Part shown: positions 1 to 54,641 of the stretch, piece after piece
Layout of the letters: each line of letters starts with the position of its first letter
Numbering within the stretch: position 1 is the stretch's first letter
Source of the DNA: Tianweitania sp. UT-5YL-CI-8
GTDB lineage: Bacteria; Pseudomonadota; Alphaproteobacteria; Rhizobiales; Rhizobiaceae
Assembly (NCBI RefSeq): GCF_030010215.1
Contig: NZ_JASCRR010000007.1
Span: forward strand, 1-64,000
Direction: 5' to 3'
DNA length: 64,000 bases
The notes under the pieces: model-generated
What the model saw: only the letters and a program-made list of their open reading frames with translations
The model's database searches: none
What the model was told of the DNA's origin: nothing
Program-made: the position numbers and the translations under genes

Positions 1-104
1 ATCGAGCGCGCCACACGCTGCCGACGCACCTGTCGTTCAAGATAGTCACGCTCTTGCTTGCCCAGAACCAGGGCCGCTGTCGGTCGACCTCTCGCGTTCG
101 CCAT
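1..104 (-). CDS. IS630-family transposase, N-terminal fragment (runs off the window)
   Basis: Reading the minus strand from an ATG at 104 gives MANARGRPTAALVLGKQERD, followed by a basic stretch with LERQVRRQRV. This is the typical start of rhizobial IS630 transposases, leading into a helix-turn-helix; the DDE catalytic domain would lie to the left of the window. A GGAGAG ribosome-binding site lies about 8 bp upstream of the ATG. Only 34 codons are visible, so whether the transposase is intact cannot be judged. Confidence 0.65.
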   Translation of the reverse strand, partial: MANARGRPTAALVLGKQERDYLERQVRRQRVARS

Positions 105-167
105 CGCTAAGCTCTCCATTGAACAAGAACAGCTTACAATGTAGCGAACTTCAGTTCCAGATGACTA
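1..167 (-). mobile_element. End of an IS630-type insertion sequence (partial)
   Basis: The first 104 bases encode, on the minus strand, the N-terminus of an IS630-family transposase. Between its start and the first CRISPR spacer there is about 60 bp that would hold the promoter and terminal inverted repeat. IS630/Tc1-like elements duplicate a TA target. A TA at 166-167 sits exactly 30 bp before the first full repeat, which is the spacer length of this array. I therefore place the element's tip at about 165 with TA as the target duplication. The other end lies outside the window, so the inverted repeats cannot be compared. The family call rests on the protein start; the boundary is inference. 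Confidence 0.6.
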
Positions 168-364
168 GAAGAATACGAGGCGGCAACCCGGTATCTGTTG
201 CAGTTGGCCCGCGATTTCTGAACTGCTAAGCTAGTACATCACGCGAGAACCGCCCCGATCCGGTTGCAGTTGGCCCGCGATTTCTGAACTGCTAAGCTCG
301 GGCTTCGCCGAATGCGAACACGCTGTTCGTTGCAGTTGGCCCGCGATTTCTGAACTGCTAAGCT
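167..364 (+). CRISPR. Short type II-C CRISPR array: three 36-bp repeats, three 30-bp spacers
   Basis: Three identical 36-bp repeats occur at 197-232, 263-298 and 329-364. Each begins GTTGCAGTTGGCCCGCG and ends TGAACTGCTAAGCT. Spacers at 233-262 and 299-328 are each 30 bp. A third 30-bp spacer (167-196) lies between the IS630 end and the first full repeat and has lost its upstream repeat. The anti-repeat of the plus-strand tracrRNA pairs with the repeat as written here, so crRNAs are made from the plus strand, towards cas2. The repeat ends TGCTAAGCT, faintly like the extended -10 inside Neisseria type II-C repeats (TGCTACAAT), so each repeat could carry its own promoter; that is inference. More repeats may lie beyond the IS to the left. 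Confidence 0.95.
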
Positions 365-365
365 C

Positions 366-412
366 TTTCGGGGCTCAAATGCTTGGTTTTCCAAGCGATT
401 TGAGCCCCGAAA
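366..412. terminator. Long hairpin between the array and cas2, probable bidirectional terminator
   Basis: Positions 366-386 and 391-412 form a near-perfect 21-bp stem around a TTTT loop, with one bulged G at 397. It starts two bases after the last CRISPR repeat and ends 25 bp from the cas2 stop codon. It separates two convergent transcripts: pre-crRNA from the left and the cas mRNA from the right. Neither side has a long T tract, so a simple intrinsic terminator is not certain. Confidence 0.5.
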
Positions 413-436
413 AGCCAACCAAAATCCCGCGAATCA

Positions 437-805
437 CTAGAACAGCGCGAGCTGTTCGGGATTTTTGGAGCGCTTCCGGCGTGACTGATCTGAGAATCGG
501 ACGATGTTTTCATACTGCCGGTCGGTGAACTGGAAGACGAAAATGTCGCCGCGCTCGGGCAGGCTGCTCTCGATCTTGCGGATATAGGCATCGAATTGTT
601 CCTTGCCGTTGCAGATGCGCAGATAGTTGGACAGTTGGCTCATCTCGAAGCCGAGATCGAGCAAATGCAGGCGAAAGGCGCCGGCGGCCTTGCGTTGCTT
701 CTTGGTTTCCACCGGAAGGTCGAACGTCACCAGCATCCACATGAGCCTGTAGGCGGACAGATGCGTTGGCTCGCCGCCTCCCTGTTGCGTGTAAAAAGTG
801 GTCAT
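437..805 (-). CDS. cas2: CRISPR-associated endoribonuclease Cas2
   Basis: This 122-residue protein fits the Cas2 family in length and has the diagnostic first beta strand ending in Asp (MLVTFDLP, Asp29), followed by the basic segment ETKKQRKAAG. Cas2 dimers bridge two Cas1 dimers in the spacer-integration complex. The start codon overlaps the cas1 stop by four bases (802-805), showing translational coupling. It is the last gene of the minus-strand cas9-cas1-cas2 operon, directly beside the array. The N-terminal 20 residues before the ferredoxin-like fold are longer than in many Cas2 proteins, so a slightly later start is possible. No csn2 or cas4 is present, which fits subtype II-C. Confidence 0.95.
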   Translation of the reverse strand: MTTFYTQQGGGEPTHLSAYRLMWMLVTFDLPVETKKQRKAAGAFRLHLLDLGFEMSQLSNYLRICNGKEQFDAYIRKIESSLPERGDIFVFQFTDRQYENIVRFSDQSRRKRSKNPEQLALF

Positions 806-1731
806 GCCGGCTCCTCCGCGCGGCGGCCGAGGGCGGCGAGCGCCAGCGGATTGGGAGGGCGCGGCAGGTCGAGCGCGACGATGCCGGTTTCGAACGAGGT
901 CGCCACGGAATGGACCAGGCGGCTCGCCTGCACCGAAAGCGGACTGGTGCCGGCTGAGGTGTCTAAGTCGAGATCGGCGATTTTCGCCAGCCGCGCCTTG
1001 GCTTCGGAGGTGACCTCGCGGATGCCTTCTGCCATGAGCGACAGCACCACGCGGTCGACCAGCGGGCGATAGGGCTCCATCAGATCGTCGGCCAGCGCAA
1101 AGGCGTTGGCGCGGTTGGAATGGAAAATGCCGAGCGTCGGGTGCAGACCGGCCGCGCAGATGGCGCGGGAGAGCACGGCGCGCAGCACAGTGTAGCCATA
1201 GTTGAGCAACGCGTTGGGGCCGTCGGCATCGGCGTCGCGGCGGAAACCGGTGCCCATCAGCGCCGACCAGTAGCGGCGGGCGGCCTGCGCTTCGAGATTG
1301 TCGGGGTCGCCGGAACGAACCTTTCGCGCCAGCATGGCAAAGCCGGCGCCCTCGCCGCCCGAGGCCGACAGCACCGCGCCCTGCATCAGGATTTTTCCGG
1401 CGACGATCTTCTGCCAGAGTTGCTTGGTCAGCGGTTTGGGAGCGGAGGCCTGCGCCCGCATGCGCGCGCCTTGCAGATGGTGGCCGGCGAGCGGCCAGAG
1501 GCAGGTGATCGGCGCATGGTTCTGCGCGCAGATCACCACCGGCACGTTACGCTCGGCAAGCTTGACGAACACGGTGTTGGACCAGGTCAGGCCGTGGGCA
1601 TGGGCGATGACGGCGCCGATATCGTCCAGCGCGATGCGGCCCTTTTCCTCGTGGCCGGCGGATACGGTCAGGAATCCGCGATGCACCGCCAGATGCAGCC
1701 CATCCGTGCTGATGTCGACGACCCGATCCAT
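802..1731 (-). CDS. cas1: CRISPR-associated endonuclease Cas1 (type II)
   Basis: Cas1 is the metal-dependent integrase that inserts new spacers. From the ATG at 1731 the product has 309 residues. The expected metal ligands are visible: Glu147 (in NLEAQAARRYW), His204 (in TLGIFHSN) and Asp216 (in LADDLMEP). I chose the ATG at 1731, which has GGGG a few bases upstream, over an in-frame TTG at 1755. The TTG lies inside an inverted repeat, and the protein beginning MDRVVDIS matches the usual Cas1 start. It lies between cas9 (127 bp upstream) and cas2 (4-bp overlap). All catalytic residues are present, so adaptation looks intact at the protein level. Confidence 0.93.
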   Translation of the reverse strand: MDRVVDISTDGLHLAVHRGFLTVSAGHEEKGRIALDDIGAVIAHAHGLTWSNTVFVKLAERNVPVVICAQNHAPITCLWPLAGHHLQGARMRAQASAPKPLTKQLWQKIVAGKILMQGAVLSASGGEGAGFAMLARKVRSGDPDNLEAQAARRYWSALMGTGFRRDADADGPNALLNYGYTVLRAVLSRAICAAGLHPTLGIFHSNRANAFALADDLMEPYRPLVDRVVLSLMAEGIREVTSEAKARLAKIADLDLDTSAGTSPLSVQASRLVHSVATSFETGIVALDLPRPPNPLALAALGRRAEEPA

Positions 1732-1749
1732 ACGCCCCACGCCATACGC

Positions 1750-1789
1750 AACCAAAGGTAGATTGCCTTAAGATAATCAACCTTTGGTT
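1750..1789. repeat. Perfect 10-bp inverted repeat between cas9 and cas1
   Basis: AACCAAAGGT at 1750-1759 is repeated inverted as ACCTTTGGTT at 1780-1789, with a 20-bp AT-rich interval. It lies just upstream of the cas1 ATG. It could be a dimeric repressor operator for a cas1-cas2 promoter, or an RNA hairpin in the cas mRNA that sets cas1 translation apart from cas9. The symmetry is visible in the sequence; its function is inference. Confidence 0.4.
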
Positions 1790-1858
1790 AAAAGCAATCG
1801 GGATATGCAACCTTAAAGCGCAGAGCGTTTGGGCCGGAGGGCCGATCCGTACCGGAGA

Positions 1859-4800
1859 TCAGGCGCGCGGGCCGGGGTCCCAGACACGGCCGATCTCGTC
1901 GACGCGCACCTGACGGGCCTTGATCGTCTTCAAGGCATTCGGCATCTTGTTAAAGCTGCGGAACGGATCGGCTTCGTCCTTGTGGCGCTCGTCCAACTTG
2001 CCACCTTCGTTGTGCGGATCGAGATAGATCTGCTTGTTGCGCCGGTCGAATTTGCGGACCCGCGCAATGACCCGCTCGCCGCTTTGCGGATGCTCATAGG
2101 CAACCATGTCGCCGATCTGCAGGCTCATGACCTTTTTCGGATTGTGATGCTCCTGCCTGATCCTCGAGACATAGCCCGGCTGGTGCGCCTCGAACATGGA
2201 GATGACATCCGCATCCCACCGCCCGTCGGGCAGCTGCCAGACATCGAAGCGATAATTGCCGCCGCCGAGATAGCCTTTGTAGACCCGACCGTTCTTGTCC
2301 TTGATCGGGATGATGGTTTCTGTTTCCAGAACGCGGATGTGGCGCAGATTCCGGAACGGATTTTTCTGACCGTCCAACGTTTCAGCTTGTGAAAACCGGA
2401 TCAAGGCCGCTTCGAACTCCTTGCCGGAGAGTCCGCGCGTCGCGGCCCACAGCGCCTCGCGCAATTGCGTGTCGCGGATCGCGGCCAGATCTTTCTCGGA
2501 TTTGAAGTCGGAGAGCTGACGCCGACGCACGACGCGCGGGCTGCCCTTCTCGTCCACCTCGTCGGTCGGGCCATAGGCGGTGTCGTTGTGCAGCTTGCCG
2601 GCGGTCTGGCCGCGGCCGGCGGCGTAGGCGTCGCGCGAGACGGTGCCATGGTCGGGCCGGTGGCTGACCACGGTGTTGCGCAGCGCCTCGCGCAGTTGTT
2701 CGCGAAAGCCGGGCCATGGGTCGGCGATTTTTTCGATCACGCGTTCGGCACCCTCCGCTTCCAACTTTGCCGATGCCGTGGCGATGCGTTGGATCAGCGA
2801 GCGGCTGGTGCAGGCGATGACGAAGGCGTCGACGGCGTGGTGGCGGTGGTCCTTGCGGTTCTTCTCCTTCACCGTATCGCTGCCGCCGATATTGTGATCG
2901 GGCAGAAGATCGTTGAGGTCCCATTTGCGCCGCAGCATCTCGGTCATACGGCCGGGCAGCGCGCGGACGCGGCTGTGCCGGCGCAGCACGCCATCGGCGC
3001 CGGCTTCCTCCGTCGGGTAGAGCGAGGCGAGATAGGTCAAGGACAGGCGCGACATATATAGCGTGTCGGTCAGTTGCCGGGCCAGGAAGCCCTCCTGATC
3101 GGCGAATTTTTCCATCGCATCGCCGGCGAACCGCCAGCGCTTGTTGCGCGGCAAGGTGCCGGCGCGGGCAAGGATGTCTTCGTAACGATCCGCCCAGCCC
3201 GACACATCGGCGGGGGCGCGATTGCGCTTCTGCCGGTTCGCGTGGGTCTTGCAAAGAATCTTGTTGCCCTCGCTGTCGTCCAGCGTTTTCGAATAGGGCA
3301 GGATGTGGTCGATATCGACCTCCGACGAAAACACCATCGCCGCCGTGATCGGCTCGCCGGAATAGATGCAGACGCGGTTGAGCGGCTGGTCCTTGTTCAG
3401 CTCCTGCCAGAGCTTGAGCCGCAGCCGGTTGTAGCCGGTGTCGGCCTGCCCCAGCGCTTTCAACTCCTCCGACCGCGCTTCCGCCTCGCGCGTGTTCTTG
3501 CGGATGGTGCGGTCGATCTCGTCCTTCTGCTTGTCGCTCAGCTTGAGCTCGCGGCCGAGCTCGATGGCGATGCGGTCGGGCTTGCCGTGACGCTTGATCA
3601 GCGCGTTGACCGTGCGGCGCAGCTGGTTGAGCGCGATGTGCACGGATGGGTTGGTAATGCGGCCCTTGAAAACGTCATAGACATCGTCGGGATTGCCGGT
3701 GCCGGGCGGAATGTGCCGGTCCAGCACCTCCTGGTAGTTCGGCAGTTCCTTGTGGCCGGGAAAATTGAGATCGCTCTTGTCGGAATGGTTGTAGCCGCAG
3801 CGCTTGGCCGCTTCCGATTCCGGGACCACCTTGCCCTCGGCATCGGTTTCCGTCTTTATGGCATCGAGCAGCATTTTCGCCGCCGTCTCGCCGATGCGGC
3901 CATAGCCATCCGGCAGATGCACCTTGGCCACCGCCTCGGCCTGATCGTCTGTCAAGGCGCACTCGGCCGTCAGCCAGGCATGCAGTTCGAACGCGTCTTC
4001 GGTGTTGCGCAGTTTCTGGACGATCTGCCATTGCCGCTCCAGGCCGAAGGTTGGCCAGCGGTTGCCGAACCCCTTTTTGTCGGACATCGCCGAATAGACC
4101 TCGTCGCCCAAAAGCTTGTCGCGGGTCTCGCTTTCCTTGTTGAAGCGGATTTCTTTGCCCAGGCCCAGTGTCTTGCGCAAACTGACGAAGGTTGCGGTCT
4201 TTGCGCTCCTCAATTGGCTATGCAATTTGTCACGCTGATCGAGCGACAGCTTGCGCCGCTTCTGCTGCTCGTCGATCAGTTCGAGTTCGTTCAACTCCTT
4301 GTAGAGCCGGAACTCCTGGAACAGCGGATGCGCCTTGGCCAGCCGCTCCTCAGCAGGGTTGTAGCTGCATTTGCCAACAAGCGGCGGCTTCAACGGGCGT
4401 TGGTAGAAGGTGATGTCGCGCAGATGTTTTATGCGCTCCTGCGTCAGAAGCTCGGGATGATGCCCGGCCTGCTCGTCGCACACGCGGTCGAACTCATCTT
4501 CCAGCGCCTGGCGCGACGGGTAAAAATCGTAGCCGTCGCCCTTGGAGTCCTCTCCGGATTCAGGGCGCAAACGGGTGCGTACTGACTTACCGTCCAGCCG
4601 GCGCTTGTAGAGGAAATCGCCGTAGCTTTTCGCGTCGACCCTGGCCATTTCATCGCGCAGCCTCGAAACGCCGATGGCGATTTTCCCGGCTTCGTTGTCG
4701 CCCTTGTCGGTCTTGCGGTTGGATCTGAAGCCCCTTCGCTGGTCGAGCGCGAAGAGAACGCGGCCGATCTGGTAGGGGTGAAGCTTTTCGTCGAGCGCGC

Positions 4801-5158
4801 GGGAGCGCAATCCATAGATGCTGCCGGACAGATCGCCGCCCTCGCCGTCCCCGGTTTCCTTGAGCAGCTTTTTGCGCGCATCCTCGCTTGTCGGCATCAA
4901 GCCATAGTCGGTCAGAGCCTTCAGCAGTGCGCTGCGCCGCGCCACATAACGGTCGCGGCGGCGGCGCATGGCGCGGGCGGCGCGGCGCTGGACGGCAAGC
5001 GAGGCCTTGGTCTGCGGTTCGCGACCGTCGGAAAAGATGCGAGCGCCGATGCCGACGATTCTTCCGCCGCCCTCAGACTTACTTCCTGGCTCGCCTTCTG
5101 TAGAAATCAACGCCCAACCGATTGACGTACTGCCAATATCCAAACCTAATGTGATCAT
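1859..5158 (-). CDS. cas9: Cas9, type II-C RNA-guided DNA endonuclease
   Basis: This 1,099-residue Cas9 is compact, as in subtype II-C. RuvC-I is at the N-terminus (LGLDIGSTSIGWAL, Asp7). It is followed by an arginine-rich bridge helix around residues 57-75, an alpha-helical recognition lobe to about 500, RuvC-II (IAIELGRE, Glu533), an HNH domain (VDIDHILPYS, His618; NRQKRN, Asn641), RuvC-III (HHAVDAFVIA, His774 and Asp777) and a C-terminal PAM-interacting region after about 800. All nuclease residues are present, so it should cut both strands of crRNA-matched DNA. It is first in the minus-strand cas operon; the matching tracrRNA is about 390 bp upstream on the opposite strand. PAM preference cannot be read from sequence. 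Confidence 0.97.
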   Translation of the reverse strand: MITLGLDIGSTSIGWALISTEGEPGSKSEGGGRIVGIGARIFSDGREPQTKASLAVQRRAARAMRRRRDRYVARRSALLKALTDYGLMPTSEDARKKLLKETGDGEGGDLSGSIYGLRSRALDEKLHPYQIGRVLFALDQRRGFRSNRKTDKGDNEAGKIAIGVSRLRDEMARVDAKSYGDFLYKRRLDGKSVRTRLRPESGEDSKGDGYDFYPSRQALEDEFDRVCDEQAGHHPELLTQERIKHLRDITFYQRPLKPPLVGKCSYNPAEERLAKAHPLFQEFRLYKELNELELIDEQQKRRKLSLDQRDKLHSQLRSAKTATFVSLRKTLGLGKEIRFNKESETRDKLLGDEVYSAMSDKKGFGNRWPTFGLERQWQIVQKLRNTEDAFELHAWLTAECALTDDQAEAVAKVHLPDGYGRIGETAAKMLLDAIKTETDAEGKVVPESEAAKRCGYNHSDKSDLNFPGHKELPNYQEVLDRHIPPGTGNPDDVYDVFKGRITNPSVHIALNQLRRTVNALIKRHGKPDRIAIELGRELKLSDKQKDEIDRTIRKNTREAEARSEELKALGQADTGYNRLRLKLWQELNKDQPLNRVCIYSGEPITAAMVFSSEVDIDHILPYSKTLDDSEGNKILCKTHANRQKRNRAPADVSGWADRYEDILARAGTLPRNKRWRFAGDAMEKFADQEGFLARQLTDTLYMSRLSLTYLASLYPTEEAGADGVLRRHSRVRALPGRMTEMLRRKWDLNDLLPDHNIGGSDTVKEKNRKDHRHHAVDAFVIACTSRSLIQRIATASAKLEAEGAERVIEKIADPWPGFREQLREALRNTVVSHRPDHGTVSRDAYAAGRGQTAGKLHNDTAYGPTDEVDEKGSPRVVRRRQLSDFKSEKDLAAIRDTQLREALWAATRGLSGKEFEAALIRFSQAETLDGQKNPFRNLRHIRVLETETIIPIKDKNGRVYKGYLGGGNYRFDVWQLPDGRWDADVISMFEAHQPGYVSRIRQEHHNPKKVMSLQIGDMVAYEHPQSGERVIARVRKFDRRNKQIYLDPHNEGGKLDERHKDEADPFRSFNKMPNALKTIKARQVRVDEIGRVWDPGPRA

Positions 5159-5159
5159 T

Positions 5160-5235
5160 GAAATTCTATACCCTCAAATTTTCACGTATGCACAAAAAAT
5201 TATAGATATTGTAGTTGTGCGTAGTGTGTAGAGAA
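5160..5235 (-). promoter_or_regulatory. Putative cas9 promoter and leader
   Basis: On the minus strand a perfect TATAAT hexamer occupies 5199-5204, about 40 bp upstream of the cas9 ATG, in strongly AT-rich DNA. A GAGGG sequence about 14 bp before the ATG is the only Shine-Dalgarno candidate and is unusually far away. The -35 region (ACACTA, about 17 bp upstream) is a poor match. The -10 is clear; the rest is a guess. Confidence 0.35.
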
Positions 5236-5307
5236 TAATTAAATTAAGCCAAATTGGACCTTGACGCAAAAAAATTCTTTTGGGATTATTGGGCCAATTG
5301 AGATTCT

Positions 5308-5346
5308 GTTGGCGCAAGCGTGGGTCCACACCACTCTTGCGCCAAC
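5308..5346. repeat. Perfect 11-bp stem-loop between cas9 and the tracrRNA gene
   Basis: GTTGGCGCAAG (5308-5318) and CTTGCGCCAAC (5336-5346) are perfectly inverted around a 17-base loop. The hairpin lies in the AT-rich stretch 5160-5550 between the divergent cas9 and tracrRNA genes. No T-run follows on either side, so it is not an ordinary terminator. Nearby are two shorter palindromes around GGGCCAATTG. No open reading frame explains this stretch. Confidence 0.45.
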
Positions 5347-5550
5347 TAGCCTTAGCCTTGGACAGCGCTGGCAAAATGAATCGAAAGAAGCCCTAAATTG
5401 GTTCACCCCACTTTAGGCGATAAATGCCACAATAAACTGTTTCTATCAATATGCCATTGTAGAGTGCAGTAGTGTGTGATTGCGGCTATAGGTCCGAAAT
5501 TCTGGCGAGCAAAAATCGCTTGATTTTTCTTCGAGCTACTTGCATCTTTG

Positions 5551-5627
5551 TTCTTCAGAAATCGCGGTCCAGCCGTTAACAAGCTGGAACAGCACCAGAT
5601 AAGGCCCACGCTACGGCGTGGGCTTTT
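5551..5627 (+). ncRNA. tracrRNA of the type II-C system
   Basis: Positions 5554-5567 (TTCAGAAATCGCGG) are exactly complementary to an internal part of the CRISPR repeat. Partial complementarity continues to the AAC at 5578-5580, which pairs with the repeat's GTT start. This is the anti-repeat. It is followed by a short linker with a CTGGAACAGCACCAG hairpin (5583-5597). An intrinsic terminator comes next: GCCCACGC (5604-5611), a TACG loop, GCGTGGGC and T6 ending at about 5629. Strand is set by that terminator. The 5' end is not visible; I start at the anti-repeat. The RNA should pair with pre-crRNA for RNase III processing and Cas9 loading. Confidence 0.88.
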
Positions 5628-5713
5628 TTGGTTCCGGTATCCAGCTCCGACTTTCCTTTGGGTGGCCTACCTGTCGAAGCATCCCGGGACGATCAAGCGA
5701 AGCCCTCTCCACT

Positions 5714-6029: not shown

Positions 6030-6461
6030 TTAACCGGCCTTCTTCGGACGACCGCCCTTGGCGCCATTGGACCGGCTCGCCGCCACTTTCGCCTCCGAGC
6101 GCGATCGGCCGCCACGGCGCTGCGCGTCCATGAATTTCGCGGTGCCGAATATGCCATTCATCAGCCCAGTGATGGTGTAGTCGACATCCAGGCTTTCCCA
6201 ATGCAGCCCGGTTTCGCCAAGAAGCGAAACTTCGGCCAATTCCGCCGAGGTGGCGGTTTCGAGACCCTGGATCGACTTGGCAGGCACCATGAAAGCAGCA
6301 CCATTTGTAAAATCGACGACGATGCGGCCGGAGGCTTCATCGAAACGAACCGAGGCCGGAATGGGAGAATTCGCGCGCTCAGACTCGCCTCGCAGAGTGG
6401 CGTCGCGGTAGTCGCGATCTTCAAAGACAATGTCATCCATGAATCTCATTCCATTTTTCAA
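6030..6461 (-). CDS. DUF2442 domain protein
   Basis: The 143-residue product carries the small DUF2442 fold in its centre (RFDEASGRIVVDFTNGAAFMVP, then LGETGLHWESLDVDYTITGL), followed by a basic, low-complexity tail (RRGGRSRSEAKVAASRSNGAKGG). It overlaps the end of the upstream DUF4160 gene by 29 bp if the ATG at 6461 is used; internal Met codons at 6446 and 6440 would shorten the overlap. DUF4160-DUF2442 pairs recur in bacteria and have been suggested as toxin-antitoxin-like modules, without firm biochemical proof known to me. The Lys/Arg-rich tail could bind nucleic acid. Confidence 0.8.
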   Translation of the reverse strand: MKNGMRFMDDIVFEDRDYRDATLRGESERANSPIPASVRFDEASGRIVVDFTNGAAFMVPAKSIQGLETATSAELAEVSLLGETGLHWESLDVDYTITGLMNGIFGTAKFMDAQRRGGRSRSEAKVAASRSNGAKGGRPKKAG

Positions 6462-6660
6462 CGAACATGAGGCGGTTCGCTTGGACGATAGTGAGCGCTG
6501 TACTCAAATCCCGTTTTTTCATGCCTCGATTGGAGATCACGGTGAGTTTTACCATATCGATACGCGCCTCGCCGTCTCCATAGACATGCACATGCGCCGG
6601 TTCATGGTCATCCGTGTAAATGACAAAACGCATGCCAGCTGAACGGAGAAGGGTGACCAT
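6433..6660 (-). CDS. DUF4160 domain protein
   Basis: From the ATG at 6658-6660 the 75-residue protein reads MVTLLRSAGMRFVIYTDDHEPAHVHVYGDG, the hallmark DHEPxHxHV motif of DUF4160. The histidine cluster looks like a metal or catalytic site, but the activity of the family is not established as far as I know. An in-frame start further upstream (6783) would add 41 residues with no resemblance to the family. It is transcribed with the overlapping DUF2442 gene, away from polA. Confidence 0.78.
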   Translation of the reverse strand: MVTLLRSAGMRFVIYTDDHEPAHVHVYGDGEARIDMVKLTVISNRGMKKRDLSTALTIVQANRLMFVEKWNEIHG

Positions 6661-6803
6661 CAATACATAATAACCCAACTTCTTGGGTTTTCCAAGCGAC
6701 GGATGGGTATGAGGCGCATCTCCTGCCATTCCATGGCACCTTCCACACCAGCCCACAGCCTTAAACATGGACAGTTTTGGCACTTGGCGTTACGGCTAGC
6801 GCC

Positions 6804-52937: not shown

Positions 52938-54641
<1,704 letters not shown>

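What the first reader, a model, noticed from the sequence alone, without database searches (positions are those of the whole stretch)
167..5627. Complete type II-C CRISPR-Cas9 locus with tracrRNA and array transcribed against the cas genes
Cas9 (1,099 aa), Cas1 and Cas2 have all catalytic residues. Anti-repeat and terminator show tracrRNA and crRNA are both plus strand, cas genes minus. A compact alphaproteobacterial Cas9 with a distinct repeat may have a new PAM.
Basis: partly seen in the sequence, partly recalled or inferred. Interest (0 to 1): 0.6.

Follow-up and report, generated by a model that had tools for sequence, protein, structure and literature searches.

The report
Cas9 locus with self-targeting guide RNA
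This is an ordinary bacterial Cas9 immune locus, but beside its known RNAs it carries what looks like a third small RNA, here partly worn, built to send Cas9 to its own gene's switch, and several related bacteria carry clearer versions of it.

Summary
That part is ordinary: 24 of 26 fetched relatives show the same array orientation, and the other two could not be read. The array is not complete in the window: four more repeats lie on another contig, and an insertion sequence splits spacer 4.

The unexpected part lies between cas9 and the tracrRNA gene. A crRNA-like unit (window 5455-5529) has a guide, a tracr-pairing half-repeat and a terminator-like hairpin. Its guide partly matches the cas9 upstream region (5207-5230). 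Relatives carry clearer copies. In 12 of 47 scanned loci a tracr-pairing segment has a guide matching the cas9 side over at least 12 bases (one mismatch allowed); shuffles gave a mean of 0.17. Swapped guides reached 12 in 0 of 270. The flanks of 16 sites lean to NGGNAT (7 exact). I read this as a type II-C form of CreR or tracr-L autorepression: Cas9, tracrRNA and a partial guide repress cas9. The case is strong for the family and moderate for the window's degenerate copy. I predict an N4AT-like PAM. No expression data were available.

The parts
1..165 (.). Outer end of an insertion sequence inserted in the CRISPR array; the other end is at C12:642046-642296
   Evidence: Terminal sequences alike by eye, and TA on both sides; the C12 end has four other matches in this genome. 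Pfam did not name the transposase; 'IS630-like' is recalled.
167..196 (+). Spacer 4 (its first base lies in the TA at 166-167); exactly 30 nt when the flanks are joined
197..364 (+). CRISPR repeats 5-7 and spacers 5-6 (repeats 197-232, 263-298, 329-364)
365..414 (.). Long hairpin between the array and the end of cas2, probably a two-way terminator; a similar one is in Oryzicola mucosus
   Evidence: sequence; function inferred
437..805 (-). cas2
   Evidence: PF09827, TIGR01573
802..1731 (-). cas1
   Evidence: PF01867, TIGR03639; aligned with 5xvn; ATG position
1859..5158 (-). cas9, 1099 aa
   Evidence: TIGR01865, 608.5 bits; motifs present
5207..5230 (+). Predicted target of the crRNA-like guide in the cas9 upstream region; flank 5231-5238 GAGAATAA
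5455..5478 (+). Guide of the crRNA-like unit
5479..5505 (+). Degenerate half-repeat, predicted to pair with the tracrRNA anti-repeat
   Evidence: -22.1 kcal/mol against -12.1 +/- 3.0 for shuffles, 2 of 300 as low; the best-pairing of 329 scanned positions overlaps it; aligned with L042, L044, L045
5504..5529 (+). Terminator-like hairpin and T-run of the crRNA-like unit
   Evidence: 3 such sites found in the region against a shuffle mean of 0.6; two of the three are this hairpin in two registers
5554..5629 (+). tracrRNA: anti-repeat 5554-5580, core 5581-5604, terminator 5605-5629

Best explanation
This is a standard type II-C CRISPR-Cas9 locus that also carries a member, live or decaying, of a family of crRNA-like regulatory RNA genes between cas9 and the tracrRNA gene. 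Shown by sequence: a guide stands directly before a half-repeat that can pair with the tracrRNA, a terminator-like hairpin follows, and the guide's last bases match a site in the cas9 upstream region. Across relatives these sites have a recurrent flank. Inferred: the RNA is transcribed from the plus strand, pairs with the tracrRNA, loads Cas9 and directs it to the cas9 promoter. With a match of only about 10-16 bases Cas9 binds without cutting and represses cas9. When crRNAs are abundant or an inhibitor removes Cas9, repression is lifted. The window's own copy has a degenerate half-repeat and a mismatch next to the PAM, and the sister species O. mucosus lacks the unit. The confidence below is for the family mechanism with the window as a member; that this copy still works I put at 0.6.
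For: Best half-repeat hit of at most 8 mismatches in 15 of 54 upstream regions. In 9 of these 15 (L028, L033, L042, L044, L046, L047, L048, L175, L176) a unit there has a cas9-side match of at least 10 with one mismatch; for L028 and L175 the unit is a half-repeat-like stretch just before the best hit. Of 13 units tested against 500 shuffles each, 11 have at most 2 shuffles as good. Joint scan of 47 loci without the repeat sequence: match of 12 or more in 12 loci, shuffle mean 0.17, maximum 1 over 30 sets; match of 10 or more plus A5T6 in 11 loci, shuffle mean 0.20, maximum 2. For 17 chosen units: own region 12 or more in 12 of 17; swapped guides 0 of 270 (1 at 11 or more, 2 at 10 or more); equal region beyond the tracr gene 10 or more in 0 of 17. 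Flank of 16 sites: G2 15, G3 14, A5 12, T6 12. Window: match of 10 with A5T6, 1 of 500 shuffles as good, 1 of 30 in the joint scan; pairing 2 of 300; hairpin; layout alignable with L042, L044, L045, 118 of 189 aligned bases identical to L044, tracrRNA included.
Against: No expression data. The window's half-repeat was recognised by eye from its likeness to L045; the library scan did not find it (best hit 9 mismatches at another place, all others 11 or more). Its seed match is 9 of 12 with the PAM-adjacent base mismatched. Units in L045 and L053 have no cas9-side target; an 11-of-12 match for L045 lies far beyond its tracr gene. L030 and L181, also among the 15, gave matches of only 6 and 8 in the joint scan, and L043's best-pairing position has no target. 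13 of 47 loci gave no position passing the pairing cut. No cas9 promoter was found by consensus. 5 of the 17 units were chosen with the target match in view. 7 of 16 flanks lack A5T6.
Confidence: 0.78

Rival explanations
1. The window's unit is a dead relic: the family mechanism is real but this strain's copy no longer works, and the locus here is in effect a plain type II-C system. (Not exclusive of the best explanation, which allows a decaying copy.)
For: Degenerate half-repeat (at least 11 ungapped mismatches to the library), PAM-adjacent mismatch and 9 of 12 seed bases, unit absent from O. mucosus, whose cas9-tracr region is 108 nt.
Against: Pairing with the tracrRNA, target match and flanking AT are still above shuffles, and a terminator-like hairpin is there.
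Confidence: 0.4
2. The units act as a long-form tracrRNA (natural single guide) rather than as a separate crRNA-like RNA: transcription runs through guide and half-repeat into the tracrRNA.
For: In L046, L028, L175 and L176 the half-repeat is followed at once by tracr-promoter-like sequence or the anti-repeat, with no terminator of its own. tracr-L works this way in type II-A (PMC11417352, passages).
Against: In the window, L042, L044, L045, L047 and L048 a hairpin stands between unit and tracrRNA, with a T-run in all but L048.
Confidence: 0.25
3. The shared words are not guides but repeated operator sites of a DNA-binding regulator of cas9 and the tracrRNA.
For: Direct repeats upstream of divergent genes are typical of operators (established knowledge).
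Against: The words differ from locus to locus (swapped guides 0 of 270 at 12 or more), stand directly before a tracr-pairing half-repeat, and the other copy tends to one flank. An operator would itself be conserved.
Confidence: 0.04
4. The units are leftover repeats of eroded arrays, without function.
For: Relic repeats occur near the array (L008 8572-8705) and in G224.
Against: Relics would not be expected to have guides matching the cas9 side beside a recurrent flank in several genera.
Confidence: 0.06

Closest known systems
CreR (cas-regulating RNAs of types I-B, I-E and V-A)
   Same: crRNA-like RNA outside the array with a partial match to the cas promoter, by which the effector represses its own genes (PMC13131331 and PMC12737573, passages).
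   Different: Here type II-C; the half-repeat must pair with a tracrRNA; Cas9 is the effector; repression is inferred only.
tracr-L of Streptococcus pyogenes type II-A
   Same: Cas9 is sent to the cas promoter by 11 matching bases next to its PAM (PMC11417352, passages).
   Different: tracr-L is one transcript from the tracrRNA locus; the window's unit is separate, with its own half-repeat and terminator-like hairpin.
scaRNA (Francisella novicida type II-B, recalled; Neisseria meningitidis type II-C, PMC13431127, passages)
   Same: Extra small RNA of a Cas9 locus.
   Different: The N. meningitidis scaRNA is described there as acting on efeO mRNA; targeting of the cas9 promoter by it is not described in the passages seen.
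Type II-C loci of Alphaproteobacteria, e.g. Oryzicola mucosus ROOL2
   Same: Cas9 93% identical, same neighbouring genes, repeat different in one base, same tracrRNA core.
   Different: 36-repeat array without the insertion sequence; short cas9-tracr region without the unit.

Membership tests
Type II-C CRISPR-Cas | Cas9 with RuvC and HNH domains | tested here: met
Type II-C CRISPR-Cas | Only cas9, cas1, cas2; no csn2 or cas4 beside them | tested here: met
   Three neighbouring ORFs on the tracrRNA side are DUF2442, DUF4160 and DNA polymerase I, and the gene beyond the array is an SBF transporter. Only these four neighbours were scanned.
Type II-C CRISPR-Cas | tracrRNA with anti-repeat and terminator | tested here: met
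CreR-type autorepressor RNA | crRNA-like unit outside the array | tested here: met
   Met in relatives; degenerate in the window
CreR-type autorepressor RNA | Partial guide match to the cas promoter region beside a PAM | tested here: met
   the promoter and the PAM are themselves unproven
CreR-type autorepressor RNA | Effector-dependent repression of cas genes | not testable with these tools
   needs a reporter assay
tracr-L | Guide and tracrRNA in one transcript | tested here: inconclusive
   Terminator-like hairpin between them in the window; geometry would allow one transcript in L046, L028, L175, L176
Racr / solitary repeat unit (prophage copy at C34:423171) | Solitary full repeat in an intergenic part of a mobile element | tested here: not met
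   25 of 36 repeat bases, exact, inside an 88-aa ORF of a phage-like region; criteria as read in PMC10651486

The most novel reading that the evidence does not exclude
Alphaproteobacterial type II-C systems carry a dedicated Cas9 autorepressor RNA in two forms, a stand-alone crRNA-like gene and a tracr-L-like fusion, both reading an NGGNAT-type PAM. In addition, a phage-like region of this very genome, partly matched by two sister-species spacers, carries an exact copy of the tracr-pairing half of the repeat followed by a hairpin, and could act as an RNA decoy that titrates tracrRNA and Cas9.
Probability: 0.2. Interest if true: 0.85.

Novelty: new variant of a known kind. Interest (0 to 1): 0.7.

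Why it matters
Cas9 autorepression has been described for type II-A (tracr-L), and crRNA-like autorepressors for types I and V-A. A separate tracr-dependent guide against cas9 in type II-C would show that self-guided repression arose in yet another subtype and by another route. The self-target sites also suggest a PAM with hardly any phage data: N4AT-like here, NGGNAT-like across the group. Editing tools built on these Cas9s should leave the unit out or use it as a built-in brake.

Tried and rejected
Spacer matches. Against phage records I searched the window's array piece, the C12 piece and the O. mucosus array. Only the last gave a clear protospacer family, in two Rhodobacter phages. The hits have E 0.8 or worse and were dropped, as was the Rhodovulum hit, which spans a spacer-repeat border. 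Against plasmids only the O. mucosus array was searched: two Novosphingobium records in pieces, probably arrays, not followed. Arrays of three other relatives gave nothing usable.

IMG/VR was scanned once with one degenerate half-repeat pattern: one contig with an array, no solitary copy. The 88-aa ORF that holds the prophage copy has no relative found there and no PHROG family.

Prophage half-repeat as a guide against the cas9 promoter: no good match. Genome-wide seed plus N4AT with up to 2 mismatches: 11 places, one of them the unit itself, against 10 for the reversed-pattern control. Rejected as a promoter-directed guide.

The half-repeats between the glucokinase-like gene and the transporter upstream of the array (L008 8572-8705) looked like a mini-array. 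The second copy and the bases before it have diverged between the two species, so I read them as relics. G224's solitary repeat beside a transposase end was likewise taken as a relic. Both the transposase and the glucokinase are my reading.

Dropped from the PAM count: L039 (match of 13, but its guide end runs into the half-repeat-like part), L174 (match of 10, pairing just past the cut), L051 (match of 12, pairing below the cut), L045, L053 and L043 (no target). L058 has no tracr core motif, so it is but not among the 47. Of 82 upstream regions, 58 have the core motif and 54 were kept as non-identical; the regions without the motif, L058 apart, were not tested for units.

Pfam did not identify the insertion sequence's transposase. 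The Parvibaculum lavamentivorans Cas9 PAM (NNNCAT, recalled) was not found in the library.
Full report
What was checked. The Cas9 motif residues D7, E533, H618, N641 and D777 are present. Cas1 keeps E, H and E where the solved type II Cas1 5xvn has them. That these are the catalytic residues is recalled. Three neighbouring ORFs on the tracrRNA side are DUF2442, DUF4160 and DNA polymerase I.

The array. The window is the start of contig C60. Four identical repeats lie at the end of C12, followed by 252 bases, all but the first of them from an insertion sequence. That stretch has four other matches in the genome, which would explain the assembly break. Its two ends look alike and are flanked by TA. 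With the flanks joined, spacer 4 is exactly 30 nt. In O. mucosus the same upstream neighbour leads straight into a 36-repeat array. So the array most likely has seven repeats and six spacers, split by the insertion. That C12 and C60 are adjacent is inferred from these facts.

Orientation. The repeat's 5' half pairs with the anti-repeat, so crRNA and tracrRNA are both read from the plus strand. The same holds in 24 of 26 fetched relatives; one has no array on its contig and one is masked. G163 has, besides, an array upstream of cas9 on the cas9 strand. The tracrRNA core motif stands divergently upstream of cas9 in 58 of 82 examined regions, 54 of them non-identical. RNAalifold on these 54 gives 14 pairs, 752 of 756 cells paired, 6 pairs with changes on both sides. 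This part is ordinary.

The crRNA-like unit. A search of 394 family genomes with the O. mucosus array showed a lone repeat upstream of cas9 in G048. Reading it gave: guide, half-repeat identical to the local repeat, hairpin with T-run, then the tracrRNA. G151 and others have the same layout. The guide's last 12 bases match the cas9 side at 11 of 12 in G048, G253, G237, G070 and G319. By half-repeat likeness alone, 15 of 54 regions have a hit of at most 8 mismatches. In 9 of these 15 a unit there has a cas9-side match of 10 or more with one mismatch. L045 and L053 have a unit without a target. L030, L039, L174 and L181 were seen only in the joint scan, with 6, 13, 10 and 8.

Statistics. With the repeat sequence ignored, positions were required to pair with the local tracrRNA at -20 kcal/mol or better, and their preceding 24 bases were compared with the cas9 side. 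A match of at least 12 (one mismatch allowed) occurs in 12 of 47 loci; dinucleotide shuffles gave a mean of 0.17 and a maximum of 1 over 30 sets. At 10 or more the figures are 17 against a mean of 2.67, maximum 6. One of the 12, L039, I do not count as a proper unit. For 17 chosen units, 12 have a match of at least 12 and 16 of at least 10. Guides swapped among loci reached 12 in 0 of 270, 11 in 1 and 10 in 2. The equal-length region beyond the tracr gene gave none of 17 at 10 or more. Five of the 17 (L014, L060, L167, L168, L173) were chosen with the match in view; the others by half-repeat likeness, the window by eye from its neighbours. L045, one of the 17, has no target.

PAM. The flank of 16 sites has G at position 2 in 15, G at 3 in 14, A at 5 in 12 and T at 6 in 12. 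Both GG are present in 13, both AT in 9, and NGGNAT is exact in 7. Phage evidence is thin. Protospacers of one O. mucosus spacer in two Rhodobacter phages, both in tape measure genes, have GCTCAT and GGACAT. One in the C34 phage-like region, in a tail tape-measure gene, has CGATAT. Against: O. mucosus spacer 8 has CCACCC there, and the window genome's own spacer 3 has GCGTAG with four mismatches. The window's self-target site has GAGAAT. I predict N4AT for the window Cas9 and NGGNAT for the wider group, with moderate confidence.

The window's unit. Guide 5455-5478, half-repeat 5479-5505, terminator-like hairpin 5504-5529, target 5207-5230, which is 49-72 nt upstream of the cas9 start. The direct repeat between guide and target was already listed in the first repeat search (family D15). 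The best-pairing of 329 scanned positions overlaps the half-repeat. The pairing is weaker than that of the array repeat (-22.1 against -32.2 kcal/mol). The target match is shorter than in most relatives, and its PAM-adjacent base does not match. I give 0.6 that this copy still works.

How it would work. Shown: layout, pairing potential, matches, flank. Inferred: transcription, loading, binding without cutting, repression. That an 11-base match gives repression rather than cutting is described for S. pyogenes (PMC11417352, passages). Relief of repression when crRNAs or anti-CRISPRs take up the effector is described for CreR (PMC12737573, passages).

What is known. CreR is described for type I and V-A (PMC12737573, PMC13131331, passages), and tracr-L for type II-A. 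The listings of searches showed no report of a cas9-directed crRNA-like RNA in type II-C. They list only the top papers of an open-access library that lacks most subscription papers. Two likely relevant papers are known to me only by recall: Shmakov et al. 2023 (not held) and the CreR paper of 2023.

The phage-like region. C34 around 418-428 kb carries erf-, ninB-, HNH- and repressor-like genes, and a tape-measure gene lies near 395 kb. I did not map the ends, so that this is one prophage is likely but not shown. Spacer 3's place at 377462 is not shown to lie in it: its neighbour ORFs have no PHROG hit, apart from an endolysin-like one. The region has an exact 25-base copy of the repeat's tracr-pairing half, followed by a hairpin. 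Among 394 family genomes (up to 2 mismatches) the only other copy listed outside arrays was G224's relic, but the tool lists only the first places of each genome. The copy lies inside an 88-aa ORF, so it fails the usual criterion for an RNA anti-CRISPR (PMC10651486, passages and section 9). It remains a lead.

Noticed in passing
L066 5172-5196 (G000:C34:423171-423195): Exact 25-base copy of the tracr-pairing half of the CRISPR repeat in a phage-like region, followed by a hairpin. Partial protospacers of O. mucosus spacers 8 and 9 lie on the same contig at 417371 and 393521, the latter in a tape-measure gene.
   Followed up: partly
G000:C34:377462: Partial match (4 mismatches) to this genome's own spacer 3; not shown to be in the prophage.
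   Followed up: partly
L008 8572-8607 and 8670-8705: Two degenerate CRISPR repeats between a glucokinase-like gene and an SBF transporter about 1.1 kb upstream of the array, also present in O. mucosus; the first is exact over its 3' 24 bases.
   Followed up: partly
window 5308-5346: Near-perfect inverted repeat between the target site and the crRNA-like unit; no other copy in the genome at E 0.1; function unknown.
   Followed up: no
L028, L030, L175, L176, upstream of the tracrRNA: Repeat-like sequence stands where the tracrRNA promoter would be, as if the tracrRNA arose from an inverted pair of repeats.
   Followed up: no
window 53088-53373: Rfam match to 5_ureB_sRNA (101.1 bits) on the minus strand, opposite an ORF that looks like urease alpha (my reading); probably conserved coding sequence rather than an RNA gene.
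   Followed up: partly
window 6030-6783: DUF2442 and DUF4160 gene pair between the CRISPR locus and polA.
   Followed up: no
G224:C8:42728-42752 (L103): Solitary CRISPR repeat next to what looks like a transposase end, in a genome with no Cas9 match at E 1e-100; probably an array remnant.
   Followed up: partly
G163:C5:48088-49042: A further array upstream of cas9, on the cas9 strand, beside the usual one downstream.
   Followed up: no
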